Positions 1 through 10,642 of a stretch of DNA of 10,642 nt are shown in pieces. The stretch spans positions 1 to 10,642 of the forward strand of contig MU070417.1 in the NCBI GenBank assembly GCA_002284615.2, given 5' to 3'. Source of the stretch: Dunaliella salina. Its lineage: Eukaryota > Chlorophyta > Chlorophyceae > Chlamydomonadales > Dunaliellaceae. Numbering within the stretch: the stretch's first letter is position 1; every line of letters begins with the position of its first letter. Position numbers and translations under genes: made by a program. The notes beneath the pieces are model-generated. The model was given only the letters and a program-made list of their open reading frames with translations, was not told where the DNA came from and ran no database searches.

Positions 1-70
<70 letters not shown>
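1..70. repeat. (AC)n microsatellite
   Basis: About 35 AC dinucleotides with two G interruptions near positions 25 and 33. The run continues off the left edge, so its true length is unknown. It directly abuts the left arm of the inverted repeat that starts at 72. Long AC runs are typical of eukaryotic nuclear DNA. Confidence 0.97.
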
Positions 71-71
<1 letters not shown>

Positions 72-72
<1 letters not shown>

Positions 73-146
73 TATCCCCTTTTCCTTAATTGATGTGAGG
101 AGTGTTTTCACTGCCTGCGTAGTTTTTCTTTTTCTTTTCTTTCCTG
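72..146 (+). repeat. Left arm of a ~74-bp inverted repeat
   Basis: Reverse-complementing 1071-1143 gives a sequence that aligns along this whole arm with roughly nine differences including one 2-base gap (counted by eye). The shared core reads CCTTTTCCTTAATTG, then after a variable stretch CTGCGTAGTTTTTCTTTT. Similarity stops at the microsatellite on the outer side and soon after the pyrimidine-rich tract on the inner side. It may be a terminal inverted repeat of a small DNA transposon or foldback element, or two opposed copies of an unknown repeat. Confidence 0.8.
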
Positions 147-640: not shown

Positions 641-832
641 GAGGGGGCTTGGGGCGGACTGCGTACAGGACAGCGAGGCACGCAGCTGGACGGATGGCCA
701 ACGACCTGCCGGACCTACATTAGCTGGGCTGCTCATACCTGGCCTTCGTTGGTGGGGCTCACTGTTAGTTTCAGCGCTGACTGTTGGATCTTTCCTTAAT
801 GCACGCTGGTTGTGTCCAGCGTAGACTCCTGC
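616..832 (+). mobile_element. 3' untranslated end of the retroelement (copy 1)
   Basis: After the tail coding block comes a G-rich tract (TTTTGGGGGAGGGGGCTT, near 633) and a segment shared with the minus-strand copy (core ACAGCGAGGC then CAGCTGGACGGATGGC, near 669-697). From 692 to about 832 the sequence matches 3174-3316 at roughly 85% by eye, including the hairpin at 803-822. Both copies lose similarity just past the hairpin, as expected if this is the 3' terminus of the element. No poly(A) or short tandem tail is evident after 832. Confidence 0.7.
803..822 (+). other. Hairpin at the presumed 3' end of the element
   Basis: ACGCTGG and CCAGCGT form a perfect 7-bp stem around the loop TTGTGT. 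The homologous copy at 3283-3302 keeps the stem except for one changed base. Some LINE reverse transcriptases recognise a 3' stem-loop in their RNA, so this is a candidate recognition structure. That role is inferred from position and conservation only. Confidence 0.6.
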
Positions 833-1070: not shown

Positions 1071-1143
1071 AGGAAAGAAAAAGAAAAGAAAAACTACGCA
1101 GACAGAGAAACTCTCCCTACACCAATTAAGGAAAAGGAGACAC
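1071..1143 (-). repeat. Right arm of the ~74-bp inverted repeat
   Basis: This is the reverse complement of 72-146 with about nine differences. It starts with a purine-rich AGGAAAGAAAAAG tract and ends with CCAATTAAGGAAAAGGAGAC. The two arms enclose about 0.9 kb that includes the retroelement fragment at 246-832. Confidence 0.8.
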
Positions 1144-2104: not shown

Positions 2105-3030
2105 CCTCCGCCATCCGTCCAGCTGCGCGCCTCGCTGTCCTGTGCGCGGCCCGCCCTGCAGCCCCCTCCCCCAATCCCGCATAGCTTATGTTGCTGAACT
2201 GGATGGCATTTTTGGTGTTGTAATTTTTGTTAGGCTCTTTACTGCGTGAAAGTGGAGATCTTTTGTGGGCTTTGCCTTTAAAGACAAATTAGGCCAATTT
2301 TGCAGAGGGGATCAATAGTGTAGAGATTGGAGATTGTTCCAGCAACTCCTATTAGTATAGTGTGCAATGCGACTCTGTTGCAGTGCGTGCTCCAAAGAAC
2401 GTTTGTGCGCAGGCGCCTGCTCTCAATGGTGTGTTTGCGCTGATTTTGTGCAGTGTGGAGAATTTGTTCTGGTTTGGTGTCAAAACAAAATTTGAGCTCA
2501 ATGAGGTGGATACCTCTGCCTCTGGGATTCATATCTTGCGGATGATGTGTGAAGTCCCTACAGATCTGCCTTCCAGGGACAAAACTAAAATCCCAGATCT
2601 GCCTTCCAGAGACAAAACTAGAATCCCATCAGGTTGACTGAGTTGTGTATTTGGAGATTGTCTGGATGGAAACAGTTAATTTGGAATGCTTCCATTGGAC
2701 ACTATTTGGAATTTCCATCTCCAGGGAGCATAGCTTCTCTGTATTGCATGCATCCATCTTTTGCTACAGTGTAAGGTCCAAAGTTTCCTTTGCTGAATGC
2801 TTCACTGCAGATGCTGAGTGCTTGATGGTGGTTCATTCTGTTACCTGTGGGTGATTGCATCTGAGTAAGGTGCGGGAATGCTATCAGGTGCACCACAAAG
2901 AGGGCAAACAGAAGGCCCAGGGTGGCCACTGGAGCGTCCGGCATATTTGCCATTGTACAGGGTGTCTGTTCAATATTTGAGGACATTGGTACAGGCGTTG
3001 CAAATGCTAGGGATCCATTCCACAAATTCT
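2105..3030 (-). pseudogene. C-terminal CCHC knuckle plus PD-(D/E)xK-like tail of the retroelement (copy 2)
   Basis: Read on the minus strand from about 3000 downward, the pieces appear in order across several frames. NVLKY-stop-TDTLYNGKYA (near 2998-2940) leads to CPLCGAPDSI (about 2906-2877), the first half of a CCHC knuckle. NHHQALSICSEAFSKGNFG follows (about 2840-2785), then PDGILVLS (near 2633), IHLIELKFCFDTKPE (near 2511), and VALHTILIGVAGT with TIDPLCKIGL (about 2369-2290). The G-rich 3' UTR start ends the copy near 2105. PD followed by E-L-K fits the PD-(D/E)xK nuclease pattern, and CCHC followed by such a nuclease is the C-terminal arrangement of R2-type LINEs. At least two frameshifts and one TGA make it inactive. 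It lies opposite in orientation to copies 1 and 3. Confidence 0.7.
2561..2626 (-). repeat. 33-bp tandem duplication next to the PD motif
   Basis: Two adjacent 33-base units (2561-2593 and 2594-2626) differ at two positions. On the minus strand each encodes the 11 residues GILVLSLEGRS, directly after the Pro-Asp at 2633-2628. The unit is a whole number of codons, so the duplication itself keeps frame. Confidence 0.95.
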
Positions 3031-3173
3031 TCTGGCTCTCATTAAAGACCTCTCATGCACAAAATGCTAGTATGCACCGGTCCCGATCCAACACCCCACC
3101 AACCTGACAAAGTACACGTGCACAAAAAGCACAAGCTTGGCTCTGCTGATACTTCTGGCTACCATTACAGTAT
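3031..3173. other. Short unassigned gap between two retroelement fragments
   Basis: No conserved motif was seen. It may contain the start of the minus-strand copy, but no protein similarity to the other copies could be followed past about 3030. Confidence 0.4.
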
Positions 3174-3316
3174 ATGGCCAACGACCCACCGGACCCACAT
3201 TAGCTGGGCCGCTCGTAGCTAGCCTTCGTTAGTGGGGCACACTGTTAGTTCTAGCGCTGACTGTCGAGTCTTTCCTGAATGCACGCTGGTTATGTCCAGC
3301 ATAGACTTCTTTCTTC
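3174..3316 (+). mobile_element. 3' UTR fragment of the retroelement (copy 3)
   Basis: Begins ATGGCCAACGACC and matches 692-832 over its whole length at about 85%, through the hairpin and the following TAGACT. None of the tail coding region precedes it, so it looks like a heavily 5'-truncated insertion, the usual product of incomplete LINE reverse transcription. The decayed + strand tail copy begins immediately after it. Confidence 0.75.
3283..3302 (+). other. Second copy of the 3' terminal hairpin
   Basis: ACGCTGG, loop TTATGT, CCAGCAT. It is homologous to 803-822, with the stem kept except for one C-A mismatch near its base. Loop and stem differ by one base each from the other copy. Confidence 0.6.
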
Positions 3317-3329
3317 AATAGATGGCAGA

Positions 3330-4150
3330 GGCTCAACTCTGCCCCACAACCCGCTTCCCAAATCACCACACAGTCAACATCCAAGCTCACAGTCCAAATT
3401 TTCAACTTGCTAACAAGGAGACCAACAACTCCTTACGGGAGAATCCTGAGACACCCTTAAACAGCAAATTAATGTAATAGAGTAACGAACAGACACAGTG
3501 TGCACACAAAAACATGCCTTCAATTTCAACTTTTCTCCTTCCAATTCTTTAAGATTCCCACTATGTGATGATACAGACATCATTGATCACATATTCCTGA
3601 ATTGTCGACAATGAATGGGATGCACACCAACAGACATCATGCGAGCCTTAGACTCTTTGTCAAAGCCCTCAGCAAAGGCCGGTATGGCTCATCCTTTGTT
3701 GTTATGGATGGCTGCGACAATGAAAAACTCTAGAAACAGGGCATGCACGTACCTCAAAACGTGGCACAAGACATTCCTAATAGGGTGTTCCCTAATGCCA
3801 ATGACTCTTTAGTCAGCCACCGGAGCCGCCCGAATTTCATCTTTGTGCGCTATATCCCAGGGCGACTAGTCCACTTTTTTGATCCCTCTTAGATCCCTGT
3901 TCGTGACAGGGACATCCACCTTGTTGAATTTAAATTCTCCCCCGACCCCTTACCACTTTGGAACGTGTAGCAGCTCAACCATCTCACACTGTAGGCAGAC
4001 TTAAATCGCGCACAAGAGATCCAAAGAGGAATAACGAAGTGACCCTGCACACCATTCGGTGTGGCTGGCACTATGTAAAAAGTGGGTACACAATCAAGCC
4101 TCTTGTGAATCTGCGCCTTACCGAGCAAAAAGCTCAGACACTAGCATCCT
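3330..4150 (+). pseudogene. C-terminal CCHC knuckle plus PD-(D/E)xK-like tail (copy 4, + strand)
   Basis: Pieces occur in the same order as in the minus-strand copy. NKETNNS is near 3412 and RTDTV with QKHAFNF near 3485-3525. FPLC-x7-H-x4-C spans 3555-3605 (a CCHC knuckle whose first Cys codon is now TTC). ASLRLFVKALSKGRYGSSF is near 3640-3697. RPN lies at 3827-3835 where RPD is expected, and IHLVEFKF carries the E-x-K at 3926-3934. RNNEVTLHTI with GYTIKPL runs from about 4027. All three frames are needed, with in-frame stops (for example TAG at 3890). RPD followed by ExK after a CCHC knuckle is the pattern of restriction-like LINE endonucleases; here the Asp is lost. The 65- and 70-residue frames at 3615-3812 and 3958-4170 are parts or shadows of this remnant. 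Confidence 0.7.
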
Positions 4151-4165
4151 GGGGGGGGGGGGGGN
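4151..4165. other. 14-G run ending in N: probable assembly gap or unsequenced homopolymer
   Basis: Fourteen G at 4151-4164 and an N at 4165, flanked by CTAGC (4141) and GCTAG (4166). The tail coding homology of copy 4 stops exactly here, while copies 1 and 2 continue for another 20-25 codons plus a 3' UTR. The true distance between the left and right sides is therefore uncertain. Confidence 0.8.
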
Positions 4166-4255
4166 GCTAGGCTGTTGTGCAAGATCAGCGTAAAACACAC
4201 CTCAGCAACCTGGGAGCACACATGACACCCCCCCCACCACCACCAGTTGTTGAGA
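4166..4255 (+). other. Junction or leader upstream of the endonuclease ORF
   Basis: Ninety bases with a C-rich tract (4226-4244). One frame stays open from 4171 and ends at TAA 4267-4269, overlapping the endonuclease start at 4256 in another frame. It could be the 5' leader of the long copy or the last codons of the preceding tail ORF; the N at 4165 prevents a decision. Confidence 0.4.
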
Positions 4256-4702
4256 ATGTGGATGTTTAACGTCCAGGGTCAGCTAAAACCATCCGAACAA
4301 AGGACAAGTTTACTCGAGCTGATGGAAAGAGAGATGCCAGTGAGGCAGGGTTGCTGGGATTCTGGGTTTGCTGTTCCTTGCTGCACTCCCGCATGATGCA
4401 GCACAGCACTTATTCTTCGCACAAGACATACTCAGCTTTGGTACATGGTTGCCAGGCCTGGTCCCCTATGCCCCTCCCAGGGCAATGGGAGACTTTTCTG
4501 TCATCTGCTCGGTTTACAATGCTGAGAATAAGTGACGTCAAATCCAGACCAATATACTACCAATTCTCAACTGATTCGCCAGTCTATTTGCAATCCTTGC
4601 TTTACCTGCAAACTTGGCTCCTTGAGTGACCACAGACCCCTTCTGCTTAGCATACCTACCAGCATCCTTGATGTCTCCATAACACGTATAACCAACCCCT
4701 AG
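4256..4702 (+). pseudogene. AP-type endonuclease domain, internally deleted and frameshifted
   Basis: The proposed start ATG 4256 opens with MWMFNVQGQL, matching the first beta-strand motif of AP-like LINE endonucleases (N of the LNVQG type). In another frame, FSVICSVYNAEN (about 4494-4529) fits the central strand before the missing GDxN motif. Back in the first frame LSDHRPLLLSI (4622-4654) is the C-terminal SDH motif with the catalytic His. Only about 123 codons separate the first motif and SDH, where roughly 200 are usual, so some 80 residues including GDxN are gone. Stops lie near 4394, 4531 and at 4700-4702. In a live element this enzyme nicks target DNA to prime reverse transcription; here it cannot be active. 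Confidence 0.72.
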
Positions 4703-5501
4703 CCAACCAGGCAACCACCCCGCATAGTTCTGGCCCGCGCTGTCAGCAGCTCTGATCAGCAAACCTTCATGCAATCTGTTCTTGACCCCACACATGGAGT
4801 CATCCAGGAGCTTGAAGGAACTCTGCAAGTGCTCAACCCAGCCTACACAGAAGCTAGCACTTTCCTCAAAAACCTCAGGTCAACGAGTGCCAAAACTACC
4901 AAGAAGCTCATCTCTCTTTGCCATAAACCTGCCCCTGAAATCCTAGAGGACCTGGCTGACAAAGTTACCAACCTCACACATTCCTCCCACGACGTTGCAC
5001 AAAAAATTTGCGAGACCAAAACTATCTCTGAAGACCATAGACACTACAACCCAAGACCTGTCGGCAACAAGCGCAACTCTCTGCTGAAAAGACTAGGCCA
5101 GATCAGAGCTATCCAGAAACATGTCCTCTTGCCCTTTGTCAACGCCAAGGACCCGACTTCCAACGTGCTAGAGCAAGTCAAGGGCAATGAAGCCTTCAAG
5201 GCTTAAGTTACATAAGGCAATCTCAGAGCTAAGAACGCTCAATCCCAACCTACCTTTACAAGAACAGCTGGAACATCTTTTAAAATCCACCAGAGAAACT
5301 ATATCTAGCATTGACCGGGCCAAAAACACTCAACAAACCAAGCAAGCTTGCAAACAGCAATGCAAACTTGCTATCAAAAACCCAAAGAAAGCACACAAAG
5401 ATATCTTCAAGGATAAGAATGCACAACCAAGAGCTGGCTTGCAAGCCCTATACAACCCTAGAGATAACCATCTCGAAACGGAACCCAAGAAAATTGCATA
5501 A
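4703..5501 (+). pseudogene. Linker between endonuclease and reverse transcriptase, with one frameshift
   Basis: Open in the endonuclease frame from 4703 to 5206, then continued in the next frame from about 5187-5207 (KAISELRTLNPNLPLQEQL) to a TAA at 5499-5501. The content is polar, Lys/Gln-rich and probably helical, typical of the spacer between nuclease and reverse transcriptase in LINE proteins. One indel near 5187-5206 explains the frame change, and the stop interrupts an otherwise continuous frame into the reverse transcriptase. No separate function is implied. Confidence 0.7.
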
Positions 5502-8048
5502 ATTGTAGAAAAATACCACAGCAATGCTCTCAAAAACGTCAATATAAAAATTGGAAAATACCTTCCAGAAGAAGCACCCAGAAGCTATCCCTGGGAGCAA
5601 GCAGGCGCATCAACACATGTTCCCGACCCCTTCACCTTCCAGTCTCAAATAACCAAAGACGAATTAGAGGGGAGACAAGAAAGAGACTGGCTCCGCTCCA
5701 AGATCCTTGACAGAAGTGCCTTCCGCGAATGCATAAAGACTCTGAGCAACAACAGGTCTCCAGGGCCGGATGGCATAGCCAATGAGCTCTTGAGGATGTT
5801 CCCTACAGAGATCCAAGAAACTATACACAAGCTCTTCATCATAATGTGGGCCACGCGTCTCACCCCTGTAATCTGGAAAACAAGCAGAACAATCCTGATA
5901 GACAAGGGAAAAGGAGAAGAAACTAACCTTTCCTCCTACAGACCAATAGGAATCGCTAATACACTCTACAAACTCTGGACCCGCCTCATCACTAGTACAC
6001 TTTATGAATATGCTGAAGCACACTCCTTGCTCAGCAGCACGCAGGCTGGCTTCCGCAACCAAAAAGATACAATTCACCAGCTCCAAAATGTAATCATGAG
6101 CTTAGAAGACGCCAAATTCTTTAAGCAAGACATCTATGCCCTCATTGTAAATTTCACCTCCGCATTCAACACAACCGATCATGACCGTATGCTATGGATT
6201 ATGTATGACCTTGGCTTCCCCACTGATGCCATAGACACGGTTAAAAACCTATACGAGGACGCTACCACCCTCATCAGACTTGCCAATGGGACTGGTACAG
6301 GACGAATTCCCGTTGAAAGAGGCACTATTCAAGGCGACACATTGTCTCCTTTCCTATTCCTACTGTATATGGAACCCCTTCTCCGCTGGCTCCACGTAGG
6401 AGGGCGCGGTTACAAACACATCTGCATCCCTAATCAAAACCAAACTGTCTCTGAAACGCACCTGGCCAACATTCTAAGCAGCGCCTCCTTTGCTGATGAC
6501 CTACTCAGCAAGGCTAACACTATTCAAAACCTCAAAATTCAGGCCCGTAAGATTACACTTTATTCCGACTGGGCAGCGCTCATCATATCCGGTAGCAAGA
6601 CCAAAGTGACAGGCATCCTATATGGTCACCCGCCTAAAGACAATAATGGAGTGACACCCTCCCGGACTCTTTGCCAGCAACTTGAAAACAAAATTGACAT
6701 ACAAGGGCAAAAAGCACAGTTCATTACACCGGACACGCCTTTTCGCTATCTGGGAGTAGAACTAACCATGAACTTGAACTGGAAGCACCAAATACGGTGC
6801 ATGACTAATAATCTCAAAGAAAAGCTAGAAAACCTAAGAGAAACGTCTCTAACCCCAAGCCTAATTCTAAAGATTATTTGTACAGCTATCATACCCAGTC
6901 TGACTTATTCCTTTGCAGTCACCCCCTGCACCCCTACTAACCTTGAGATGTGGGATAATATGGTGGATATAATTATTAAAGACAAGTTTGGTCTGTGGAA
7001 TTGCACTGCTACTGCCATGATTCGAGAGGACACCTCTAATTGTGGCCTGGGTGTAACATCAATATCTGCGGAATACCATAGGCGAATGGCCCTTGCCCTT
7101 ACTCTGAGCTTAGAAGACCCTTCAATCAGACACCGCAATGTCACTATGAACCTCCTCACAATGCAAGTAAAACACTTGAAGGACCTAGCCACAGAGTACC
7201 TCACAACAAGAGAAGGAACAAACCATCGAATTAAGCGCCAACTAGACTACTGCATGAGAGCTCGTCAGCTCATCAGTGTCTACTCGAGCAAGCTCCACCT
7301 CACAAAACAAAGCATAAGTCTGTTCCTGGATGACTTCAAGATCATTGATGAGGCTCTCTCCCTCCATAAACCCCCGGCCCACTCCTTCCCAACGCTGATT
7401 GCTTGCATCACAAAACCCCTCCTAAGTCTAGACATCCAAGGACTCCATGAACTTACAACCACTAGCGGAACCCACATAATCACTGTGGCGCAACTCAAGA
7501 ACAAGCACTCAAAAATTACAAATAAAAGGAAAATAGTCCTCAACAGGTTGGCAGCCCTAGTCAACCTACCTCCTGATGTAGAATTAACCCAGGACATCAT
7601 ACATAAAAATCAGGAAGACAAAAATACTGCAGCTAACACACTCCCTAGATTTCGCCAGATCAACAACAGCCACATAAGCGAGCTGGTCGACACACACTTC
7701 AACGGTGCACCTCCAGACTCACCATGCCCAGAAACTATCCCCCTAACTGCACACACATCACAACCAGTACCCCCAACAGTACCCCCAACACAACCCTGTT
7801 CCAGAACCCGCTATACACACCCGCTTACAGGCCGCCGCACCAACCTGACAAATACCTCTGTCACTACCCCCAACCAAGACCCTAACAGAGCAACATGCAA
7901 TCGTGGGGCCAGCCTAGCAGAAATCAATAACAATCAATCCACCATCTCCTTTCCTTCCAGATGCAAGAAACAGCATGTGCAGCTGCTGATTTTTAAGTTA
8001 ATTATGTCCTTTCTTCTGTATTCAATGCACACCTTCCACCATTCGTGA
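5502..8048 (+). CDS. LINE-type reverse transcriptase, catalytic Asp replaced by Asn
   Basis: An uninterrupted frame of 848 codons, continuous with the linker apart from the TAA at 5499. Motifs in order are FRECIKTLSNNRSPGPDGI (to 5777), RPIGIANTLYKLW (from 5940), QAGFRNQKDT (near 6042), motif A IVNFTSAFNTTDHD with N at 6150-6152 where Asp is required, motif B GTIQGDTLSPF (6321), motif C FADD (6489-6500), and the thumb start FRYLGVELT (6741). AAT for GAT is a single G-to-A change and should abolish polymerisation. After about 7650 the protein becomes Pro/Thr-rich (PPTVPPTQP), and its last 30 residues look like read-through into unrelated sequence. The ATG at 5790 lies inside the domain and is not the natural start. 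In a working element this enzyme copies the element RNA at the nicked target. Confidence 0.93.
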   Translation: MVEKYHSNALKNVNIKIGKYLPEEAPRSYPWEQAGASTHVPDPFTFQSQITKDELEGRQERDWLRSKILDRSAFRECIKTLSNNRSPGPDGIANELLRMFPTEIQETIHKLFIIMWATRLTPVIWKTSRTILIDKGKGEETNLSSYRPIGIANTLYKLWTRLITSTLYEYAEAHSLLSSTQAGFRNQKDTIHQLQNVIMSLEDAKFFKQDIYALIVNFTSAFNTTDHDRMLWIMYDLGFPTDAIDTVKNLYEDATTLIRLANGTGTGRIPVERGTIQGDTLSPFLFLLYMEPLLRWLHVGGRGYKHICIPNQNQTVSETHLANILSSASFADDLLSKANTIQNLKIQARKITLYSDWAALIISGSKTKVTGILYGHPPKDNNGVTPSRTLCQQLENKIDIQGQKAQFITPDTPFRYLGVELTMNLNWKHQIRCMTNNLKEKLENLRETSLTPSLILKIICTAIIPSLTYSFAVTPCTPTNLEMWDNMVDIIIKDKFGLWNCTATAMIREDTSNCGLGVTSISAEYHRRMALALTLSLEDPSIRHRNVTMNLLTMQVKHLKDLATEYLTTREGTNHRIKRQLDYCMRARQLISVYSSKLHLTKQSISLFLDDFKIIDEALSLHKPPAHSFPTLIACITKPLLSLDIQGLHELTTTSGTHIITVAQLKNKHSKITNKRKIVLNRLAALVNLPPDVELTQDIIHKNQEDKNTAANTLPRFRQINNSHISELVDTHFNGAPPDSPCPETIPLTAHTSQPVPPTVPPTQPCSRTRYTHPLTGRRTNLTNTSVTTPNQDPNRATCNRGASLAEINNNQSTISFPSRCKKQHVQLLIFKLIMSFLLYSMHTFHHS

Positions 8049-8249
8049 TGGTGCATTCAACTAAAAAGGGAAGACCACAGAAGCAGTTCAAAAGTGCTGC
8101 AGCATTTTTGAGTCCCTTAAAATGTTTAACTCAGTTGCAAAAACGATTGGAAGCTGCTATGCTTCAGGAATGATAAGCACTGGGCTGCATTAGGCACACA
8201 CACCTCTAGCAATTGTATTGGTTCACCCAGCTGAAAAAAATGGCTGTAA
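8049..8249. other. Spacer between the two ORFs
   Basis: AT-richer than the flanking coding parts and without a long frame. CACCATTCGTGATGGTG at 8038-8054 forms a 6-bp stem spanning the reverse transcriptase stop codon. If the two ORFs belong to one element this is the inter-ORF region; if they are two tandem elements it is the 3' end of one and the 5' end of the next. Confidence 0.5.
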
Positions 8250-8882
8250 AAACACAAATACTCAGTTTCTCCACGCAAATACAGCATTCTAGAGTACAAA
8301 ATACTGTTTCAACAGGATGGAATCTTAAACACAACAGAGACAACCTCCCACAACACCTCCTCCTTAAACATTGCCTCCTTTGACATCACTTCCCAGAGCA
8401 TCATCTCCCTGACCACCACTTCTCACAGCACGCAAGGAACCTCCTCCACACCTCACGAAGAGGCAAGCATTAACCCTGGAAACACTCGAGACACCATACA
8501 AGAAAACATACAAGGTACCACTACCCAAAGGAGCCCCAACAACGCCGACAATAATCCCCACTGGCAGGAAGCTGCCAACGAGCATGATGTACCTCCCACA
8601 AAAGCTATACCACTCAATGCACTTTCTCAAAATACCATAAACGCAAATGAAGAGCCACCTAGCAAAAGGACATGTTCTAAAAGCAAACAAACAACCACAC
8701 TAACCACAGGAGCAACCTCCCTGGTGCAAAACACACCTCAAAACTACTGACTGCTCCCCACTCAGGAAATACAGCAAGGAACCACAGAGACCCCATACTC
8801 TGCCACCACACCCACGCAAGCACAAAATATAACACAAGTTATGCCCCTTTACCCCCAGGAAACTCCTTCAAGAACCATCTCC

Positions 8883-9110
8883 ATCACGAAGAGAGCCGCC
8901 TCTGCGAACCTAGCACTCCCCACCACCCAACCTATCCATCCTGATGCCCCACACAGGTGGGACCCACAGGCTGTTTTTCCCCCTAATGAGCCATCCAGCA
9001 AGCGCACGCGATCCAAGTCACAATCAAGCTCCACTCACACACAGAGTACCTGTAACCAAACAACATCCAATGCCCTAGCCTTACAACACCCAAGCGAGAA
9101 TCTACCCCCC
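8883..9110 (+). repeat. 228-bp tandem repeat, unit 1
   Basis: A 76-codon unit beginning with KRAASANLALPTTQP and containing NEPSSKRTRSKSQSSS. It is followed at once by unit 2, with about 85% base identity by eye. A 36-base block around AAGCGCACGCGATCCAAG is identical in both units. An older, weaker third relative (EEPPSKRTCSKSK) lies upstream near 8651. Confidence 0.93.
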
Positions 9111-9348
9111 ATCAGGAAAAGAGCCGCCTCTGCCAACCTTGCACTACCCACCACCCAACCTCACAATCCGGATGCCCCACACAGAAGGGACCTGCAAGCT
9201 ATGTCTCCCCCCAACGAGCCTCACAGCAAGCGCACGCGATCCAAGTCACAATCAAGCTCCCTCCATACACTGAGTACCTGTAACCAAACAACATATGGAT
9301 GCATCCAATCCCCTGGCCATGCAACACCAAAGTGACAACCCAACCCCC
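9111..9348 (+). repeat. 228-bp tandem repeat, unit 2, with a 10-base insertion
   Basis: Same layout as unit 1. An extra ATGGATGCAT at 9295-9304, absent from unit 1, shifts the frame and ends the upstream reading at 9335. Correcting for it restores alignment with unit 1 (SNPLAMQHQSDN against SNALALQHPSEN), showing that the frameshift came after the duplication. Confidence 0.92.
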
Positions 9349-9693
9349 ACTCACCATCAGCCAAGCTCCCCCTCTGAGCCTCCCACCACCACCCTAATGT
9401 CCTCTAGCCAAGGCACACAAAGCAGCCGACAGAAATCTAAGAGGAGAAAGCTTCTTCAACCTAATGCAAACCTCTCTATCCCTAGTATCTCCCCACTGGG
9501 CCATACAGCCCAACACACAGAGGTATGGCACTACAAGAAAAATAAATTGAGAAAACTAATAGATGAAACAAACCTCTATGACGCAATCAATACTATTTAC
9601 AACTGCGACCTAAATGATATCACACATATCAGTGATTGGAGGATCATCACAGCCAAGAAAAGAGACTGGAACAATGAGCCTCCCAAGCACACC

Positions 9694-9925
9694 TGTCAAT
9701 ACCAAAACTGCCGCGTGAGCTGAAATTGAGTGTGCCTGCTGTGAGATCTGCAACTACAACGGCGGCAAAGAGCCCGTAAACTCTGAGCCCCCCTACCCTG
9801 ACATGTACATCTGCGATGTCTGCCACCGAACCTACCACTGGTCCTGCATGAAGGAGCTCGGATGTTACTCTGATGCACAAAGACAGGATGTTGACAACAA
9901 CATTTATTGGGCCTGCCCTGCATGC
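9694..9925 (+). pseudogene. C4HC3 PHD finger within the second ORF
   Basis: Zinc ligands by codon position are C9740, C9749, C9812, C9821, H9836, C9845, C9914 and C9923. Spacing is C-x2-C, about 20 residues, C-x2-C-x4-H-x2-C, 22 residues, C-x2-C, with the Trp two residues before the seventh ligand (WACPAC) that is typical of the fold. Extra Cys pairs just upstream (9694, 9709, 9731, 9737) may form an extended zinc module. A one-base shift near 9716-9721 separates those first two Cys from the rest. PHD fingers usually read histone H3 tails, and some CR1-group LINE ORF1 proteins carry one, so chromatin tethering is a reasonable inferred role. Confidence 0.88.
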
Positions 9926-10642
9926 AAACCTCTCAGCAATGACGAGAAATTTAAAAAAGAATCAAACTCTTTCAGCAATAAACTAATTCATGTTGATTGG
10001 GAGCCAAGCTGGGAACCTGAAGACATCAGGGAAGCTTGGCCCAATTTTCATGAATGCATCCTTGAATTTGAGGCTTGCAAAGATGAACCAGACCTCTCCA
10101 CTCCAGCTGCTAACTCTGAGCTAGACAACCTTGTAAGGATTTGAAAACTCAGACAGGATAAACACTTGGAAACAAAAATTAGACACGGAACTCCGTAACA
10201 AGGCCACCTTTGACATGAATCCCACAAACCCCCAAGTAGACATTAATGGAACTGGCCGCTGTGGATTCTGGATCACAACAGTTGACCTCACTAGGCCAAA
10301 GCTAAGTAATACAGCAGGCCCCCAACCCAGAGCAGATGCTACCCACTCCCCCTCCATGCCACCAATACCACCTCTGGTGCTACCACAAGTCTATTCCAAA
10401 CAAGTGGCATGCATTTATGGCACAGACGGAAGATGCAAAGGAATGCTAACCCCTGAGCGCATCAATATCCTCAACACTGCTTTCAACAGAGCCAGAGACA
10501 ATGGGATCCACAACACAATTTAGCCTCCACCCCAAAGCTTTGCCTCTGAGCTCGTGGGTCTTTTCTCGCGCTCAACCCTCAACAGCAAAACGCAACAAAG
10601 TAAGAAAATCAAGGACTCATTCATGCGCATCCTACCAAACCA

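What the first reader, a model, noticed from the sequence alone, without database searches (positions are those of the whole stretch)
2105..10642. Fragments imply a retroelement with two unrelated endonucleases plus a PHD finger
The long copy has an AP-type endonuclease remnant (MFNVQG, SVYNAEN, SDHRP) before its reverse transcriptase. Two other copies in the window carry a CCHC knuckle followed by PD and ExK (PDG with ELK at 2633 and 2499; RPN with EFK at 3827 and 3926), the layout of R2-type restriction-like nucleases. Dualen/RandI elements are known to carry both nuclease types. A PHD finger in the second ORF would add a chromatin reader. Whether the pieces come from one element is inferred from shared repeat context and from recollection of related proteins.
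Basis: partly seen in the sequence, partly recalled or inferred. Interest (0 to 1): 0.75.

Follow-up and report, generated by a model that had tools for sequence, protein, structure and literature searches.

The report
Two-nuclease algal retrotransposon with chromatin reader
Damaged pieces in this stretch belong to an abundant, probably algal, jumping gene whose giant protein carries two unrelated DNA-cutting enzymes plus a chromatin-reading finger and an RNA-methyltransferase-like part, an unusually rich version of a known family.

The parts
4583..10639 (+). long decayed copy of the element, APE C-terminus to MTase-like N-terminal part, cut by the assembly gap after 10642
   Evidence: collinear DNA matches to L050 and L052, 80-90% identical; gap: L039 is 9958 of 10000 N
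4583..4678 (+). C-terminal end of the AP-type endonuclease, with SDHRP at 4625-4639
   Evidence: tblastn with APE of L052, 9.8e-13
4679..5017 (+). spacer between APE and RT
   Evidence: tblastn 8.6e-59
5502..8048 (+). 848-codon open stretch with reverse transcriptase (matches L050 RT at 5721-7034; FADD at 6489-6500)
   Evidence: RVT_1 1.6e-21; best R2 chain 5.7e-28, best L1 chain 3.7e-15
7949..8324 (+). 376-base stretch in the long copy with no counterpart in L050, nearly single-copy
   Evidence: gap in collinearity; DNA search found only itself and one partial match, 76% over 93 bases
8325..9690 (+). Ser/Thr/Pro-rich linker with a duplication (8881-9066 and 9109-9294)
9731..9925 (+). PHD finger (C4HC3)
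   Evidence: pattern match; fold of the homologue P0002 matches UHRF1, BAZ2B and ATXR5 PHD fingers
10398..10640 (+). N-terminal part of the PCIF1-like methyltransferase domain
   Evidence: tblastn 6.3e-43 to the L050 domain
2290..2868 (-). RLE remnant of another copy, with PDG and HLIELK; zinc-knuckle piece at 2880-2981
   Evidence: P0042 1.4e-10, P0060 2.0e-13, P0052 1e-4
3414..3955 (+). zinc knuckle and RLE remnant of another copy, with RPN and HLVEFK; C-terminal piece at 4036-4149
   Evidence: P0055 9.5e-15 for 3608-3955; flanking pieces P0056, P0092, P0152, P0045
446..655 (+). RLE C-terminal remnant of a further copy
   Evidence: P0036 1.8e-8
694..830 (+). probable 3' end of a related family (homologous to 3174-3310)
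   Evidence: direct repeat 87%
3174..3310 (+). 3' end of a related family, holding PPDPH (3186-3200), stop and 3' UTR
71..142 (+). 3' UTR end of the element's own family, next to an (AC)n microsatellite
   Evidence: 94% to L050 (71-139) and 96% to L052 (71-142)
1079..1136 (-). 3' UTR end of the element's own family, minus strand
   Evidence: 88% to L050
4195..4590 (+). separate dispersed repeat that holds FNVQG and SVYNAEN; not shown to be part of the element
   Evidence: 40 places scored of 266 candidates, matches centred on about 4245-4551

Best explanation
An abundant, decayed non-LTR retrotransposon family (Dualen/RandI-like). Its coding part runs AP-type endonuclease, reverse transcriptase, Ser/Thr/Pro-rich linker, PHD finger, PCIF1-like methyltransferase-fold domain, RNase H, zinc knuckle and R2-type restriction-like endonuclease, followed by a short 3' UTR ending in a T-rich repeat with CTTTT-like units. 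Shown: order of domains in single copies, RT-to-RLE in one open frame, predicted folds of relatives, abundance. Supported only partly: selection on the domains (dN/dS). Inferred: APE joins the same polyprotein; it moves by target-primed reverse transcription, one or both nucleases cutting the target and RNase H removing template RNA; the PHD finger reads histone H3 tails (it lacks the Trp that I recall as part of the K4me3 cage, and its nearest solved folds, UHRF1, BAZ2B and ATXR5, I recall as unmodified-H3 readers) and so biases where the complex lands; the PCIF1-like domain, having lost the NPPF motif, more likely binds capped RNA or cofactor than methylates.
Against: No copy that I read is intact from end to end: L059 and L060 have broken frames, and L059 an interruption in the APE; L050 lacks the APE and reads HLVEVN where ExK is expected and KRPD for SRPD. 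In L052 a stretch of RT is missing and a 3' end is interposed, so its APE and RLE may be two insertions. PF12237 and PHD scores in the element's own copies stay under Pfam cut-offs (L050: 8.4e-4 and 0.98 for PHD_4). A sequence search of PDB with the P0185 domain found PCIF1 only at E 0.081. The P0002 model is poor overall (mean pLDDT 59.2). dN/dS does not clearly separate domains from spacer: in close copies MTase 0.39, RNase H 0.34, RLE 0.34 against 0.36 for the PHD-MTase spacer; and the loci compared were mostly picked by similarity of their PHD, which biases the PHD value (0.17) downwards. The N-terminal end was not defined.
Confidence: 0.9

Rival explanations
1. Two separate element families, an APE-RT LINE and an RLE-type element, sit next to each other by nesting, and the dual-nuclease element is an artefact of fragments.
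For: The window itself is such a mosaic: its RLE scraps are from other families, and L052 may be two insertions.
Against: One 2430-aa frame joins RT to RLE; similar spacing recurs in tens of copies; APE to RLE collinear in L059 and L060; RT, PCIF1 and RNase H share one protein in the distant relative P0272.
Confidence: 0.04
2. The PCIF1-like domain is an active adenosine N6-methyltransferase that marks the element's own RNA (cap or internal).
For: Fold and FGA motif kept (F1170, G1171 and A1172 of P0185 invariant in the 9 rows of A3); dN/dS 0.16 in two very distant, saturated pairs; methyltransferases of other families occur in other retrotransposons (PMC5890265, passages read). P0010 keeps an Asn (NPIY).
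Against: The motif at the place of NPPF reads HPIY or similar in 25 of 25 pattern matches among 37 loci, NPEN in P0185 and CMPG and FPGT in P0199 and P0272; none of these is NPPF, whose Asn I recall as essential.
Confidence: 0.2
3. Only one nuclease still works; the APE or the RLE is a relic.
For: Other LINE groups manage with one nuclease (established knowledge); L050's RLE has lost the ExK lysine.
Against: Zinc knuckle, RPD and ExK are kept in 6 of 6 RLE loci (the six best hits), the RHN pattern in 4 of 6; GDMN, IDD and SDH can be read in the APE of L052; both domains occur in relatives.
Confidence: 0.3

Closest known systems
Dualen / RandI group of non-LTR retrotransposons (Kojima and Fujiwara 2005; paper not held, recalled; its two nucleases are stated in PMC4640811 and PMC3636483, passages read)
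   Same: APE and RLE in one element; RNase H (PMC4640811 lists Dualen/RandI among RNase H carriers); green algae (host here inferred; Dualen families in all species of PMC8226300, passages read); simple 3' repeats: (CTTT)n in a SINE with a RandI-2 tail (PMC3747384, passages read), like the CTTTT-type tail here
   Different: PHD finger and PCIF1-like domain between RT and RNase H, not mentioned in the passages I read nor in what I recall; whether published Dualen proteins have them unrecognised is open
R2 elements
   Different: also an APE, RNase H, PHD and MTase-like domain; no common insertion site in the 3' flanks printed
CR1/L2 LINEs with a PHD finger (PMC4120745, passages read)
   Same: a PHD finger carried by a LINE
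   Different: there in ORF1, or at the 5' end of ORF2 or of a single ORF; here after the RT, and the nuclease set differs
PCIF1 / CAPAM cap-specific adenosine methyltransferase
   Same: fold and, in relatives, sequence family PF12237
   Different: part of a retroelement polyprotein; NPPF motif replaced
DNMT- and Dam-bearing retrotransposons (PMC5890265, passages read)
   Same: methyltransferase captured by a retroelement
   Different: cytosine DNMT or Dam-like enzymes; not the PCIF1 family

Membership tests
Dualen/RandI | APE and RLE in the same element | tested here: met
   L059 and L060, collinear though in broken frames
Dualen/RandI | RNase H domain | tested here: met
Dualen/RandI | RT placed between RLE-only and APE-only groups (recalled, and PMC4640811) | tested here: inconclusive
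   best R2 chain 5.7e-28, best L1 chain 3.7e-15; no tree built
Dualen/RandI | cysteine protease (recalled) | tested here: inconclusive
   Josephin 0.029 in the N-terminal piece of P0194, no family for the L052 piece
R2 clade | zinc knuckle plus RLE at the C-terminus | tested here: met
R2 clade | no APE | tested here: not met
   APE present
R2 clade | insertion at one fixed target (28S rDNA) | tested here: not met
   3' flanks differ by eye among the loci printed; no further target test was run
PHD finger | C4HC3 ligands with Trp before the seventh Cys | tested here: met
   window and 23 of 30 PHD loci (best PHD hits); fold match
PHD finger of H3K4me3-reading type | Trp in the CxxCxxWFH position (recalled) | tested here: not met
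   CDVCHRTYH in the window
PCIF1 family | PF12237 over its cut-off | tested here: met
   met in relatives P0185 (2.2e-12) and P0199 (1.5e-10); the element's own copies L050, L052 and L041 stay below the cut-off
PCIF1 family, active enzyme | NPPF catalytic motif | tested here: not met
   0 of 25 pattern matches read NPPF; 0 of 12 relatives with a match (13 tried)
Element able to move today | intact full-length copy | tested here: inconclusive
   none among the loci read; closest RT copies of the window 97% identical

The most novel reading that the evidence does not exclude
A PHD finger and a PCIF1-type methyltransferase fold that has lost its catalytic asparagine form an old, conserved module of dual-nuclease retrotransposons in algae, unnoticed so far, that reads chromatin and RNA (cap or cofactor) and so couples choice of site and template to two nucleases in one polypeptide. 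It would be the first PCIF1-family domain reported in a retroelement.
Probability: 0.5. Interest if true: 0.75.

Novelty: new variant of a known kind. Interest (0 to 1): 0.62.

Why it matters
The place of dual-nuclease elements in the RT tree is taken to mean that APE-type LINEs arose from RLE-type ones by nuclease replacement (PMC4640811, passages read). A copious family with both nucleases, each with readable motifs, makes it testable which nuclease cuts which strand. The PHD and PCIF1-like domains, seen together with an RT also in distant relatives from environmental sequence (P0185 and P0230 with both, the PHD and PCIF1 scores of P0230 below cut-off; P0203 and P0164 with PHD; P0199 and P0272 with PCIF1), suggest that these elements read chromatin and RNA ends. 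I did not find this pairing described for LINEs in the searches named in Tried and rejected.

Tried and rejected
Rejected: FNVQG and SVYNAEN as APE motifs of this element. Rejected: the window's RLE scraps as parts of the long copy. Rejected: L052 as proof of one element with both nucleases, because its RT is interrupted and a 3' end lies between; L059 and L060 were fetched for that reason (2 of the candidate places; others were not fetched). Tried without result: PDB sequence searches with the mixed profiles A1 and A2 showed RNase H or RT-with-RNase-H rows only (one search shows the best 60 of 123; all 19); R2 RLE and PCIF1 came out by fold. Rfam at gathering thresholds found nothing. A cysteine protease in L052 was not supported by Pfam. 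In one search a first, stricter MTase pattern and the GDxN pattern matched nothing in any set; the MTase count given is from a second pattern in the same call. No RT tree was built. Searches for print; I saw titles and abstract starts of the listed papers, and passages of PMC8226300, PMC4640811, PMC5890265, PMC4120745, PMC3636483, PMC3747384, PMC5348765 and PMC4686597. None of what I saw tells of a PCIF1 domain in a retroelement or a PHD in Dualen, but the 14 papers listed for PCIF1 with retrotransposon were not opened, and the library lacks most subscription papers. The Dualen paper is not held. dN/dS was pairwise against L050 only, on decayed copies, without a tree; pairs covering less than half a domain, repeated values and pairs without a computable value were dropped. 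In one search I gave 27 of the 150 PHD places and 11 of the 94 RLE places (those I saw on shared contigs), so its counts are minima, while the expectation used all 150.
Full report
What the window is. It is bases 1-10642 of contig C967 (61,658 bases) in an unnamed assembly of 284.9 Mb in 1403 contigs. One relative carries the name Dunaliella salina (P0140, 89% identical over 15% of the query), and the eukaryote names among the listed RT relatives are green algae (Haematococcus lacustris P0192 and P0194, Parachlorella kessleri P0210, Micractinium P0227), so the host is probably Dunaliella or a near green alga; that is inference. Many matches bear the EukProt label Pelagomonas calceolata, which I do not trust as a host name. 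After 10642 comes an assembly gap (L039: 9958 of 10000 bases N), so the window alone cannot answer the finding.

The observation. The long copy is real: the DNA from 4583 to 10639 matches other copies collinearly, apart from a 376-base stretch at 7949-8324 that is nearly unique in the genome, a duplication in the linker and a small loss near 9690. It starts inside the APE (SDHRP), passes through the RT (RVT_1 1.6e-21) and PHD finger and ends in the first third of a methyltransferase-like domain. The three RLE remnants in the window match relatives at 1.8e-8 to 9.5e-15 by tblastn (per query) but are only 33-43% identical to the RLE of L050, so they are from other families of the same kind.

One element. 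The PHD query gave 150 scored places of 2632 candidates, the RLE query 94 of 16545, the RT DNA query 40 of 583 (its 41 matches include a second piece at one place). Among 150 PHD and 94 RLE places, 30 pairs lie within 20 kb where about 2 are expected; 28 are on one strand with gaps of 1466-2133 bases, the other two being C18 (same strand, 6614) and C728 (opposite strands). 20 of 40 RT places, the window's included, have PHD downstream within 6 kb and 8 have RLE downstream within 8 kb (minima). L050 carries RT, linker, PHD, MTase-like, RNase H, zinc knuckle and RLE in one frame of 2430 codons. L059 and L060 carry the APE as well, in order, over 9.2 and 8.2 kb. The reading frames of L059 and L060 are broken, and the APE of L059 is interrupted.

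Function. The RT scores higher against R2 than L1 chains. In the MTase-like domain the motif at the place of NPPF reads CHPIY (20), RHPIY (2), CYPIY, CHPVY and CHLIY (1 each) in 25 matches among 37 loci, so I expect binding, not catalysis; this is inference, and one relative (P0010) keeps an Asn. dN/dS against L050: PHD median 0.17 in 29 close pairs, 0.16 in one other; RT 0.12 in its one pair; MTase median 0.39 in 10 close pairs and 0.14-0.49 in 21 diverged pairs, of which three are saturated (0.16, 0.16, 0.29); RNase H 0.34 in 13 close and 0.05-0.23 in 15 diverged; zinc knuckle plus RLE 0.34 in 10 close and 0.18 in one saturated; PHD-MTase spacer 0.36 in 28 close and 0.21 in one; linker 0.65 in 5 close and 0.36-0.45 in 5 diverged. 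The medians and listed values are below 1 and the linker is highest in close copies, which agrees with constraint, but the spacer is no looser than the MTase in close copies, 30 of the loci were chosen by their PHD, the copies are decayed and no tree was used; I take it as weak support. The 3' ends share a UTR ending in CTTTT-like repeats, followed by different flanks, so no fixed target is seen.

Known or new. It works like, and in the features I could test fits, a Dualen/RandI element. The PHD finger after the RT and the PCIF1-like domain are what is new to me. PHD fingers are known in CR1 and L2 LINEs, at the 5' side (PMC4120745, passages read), and methyltransferases of other families are known in retrotransposons (PMC5890265, passages read). 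I could not read the Dualen paper, so the module may sit unrecognised in its proteins.

Noticed in passing
What it is remains open.
   Followed up: partly
window 7949-8324: A 376-base, almost single-copy stretch splits the long copy between RT and linker; whether it is intron-like was not tested.
   Followed up: partly
L052 minus strand, upstream of the APE, and P0194 residues 1-116: Possible N-terminal cysteine protease (Josephin, E 0.029 in P0194; no family for the L052 piece); would fit the recalled Dualen protease.
   Followed up: partly
P0200 residues 1-77: An N-terminal stretch that recalls a Ulp1-type protease, in front of APE and RT; Pfam gave no support.
   Followed up: partly
Many EukProt proteins labelled Pelagomonas calceolata are close to these elements (up to 90% identical, P0037); mislabelling or contamination is likely.
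   Followed up: no
(P0063, P0158-P0160, P0259): Relatives are annotated as bacterial MAG proteins (Halalkalibacterium, Spirochaetia, Agrobacterium, Hydrogenophaga); probably eukaryotic contigs binned wrongly.
   Followed up: no
L042:54-1349 (minus) and L051:434-1953 (plus): At least one more, diverged family of the same kind in this genome (RLE about 49%, MTase about 56% identical to L050).
   Followed up: partly
window 1-142: A 3' UTR end of the family directly abuts an (AC)n microsatellite; whether microsatellites are favoured targets was not tested.
   Followed up: no
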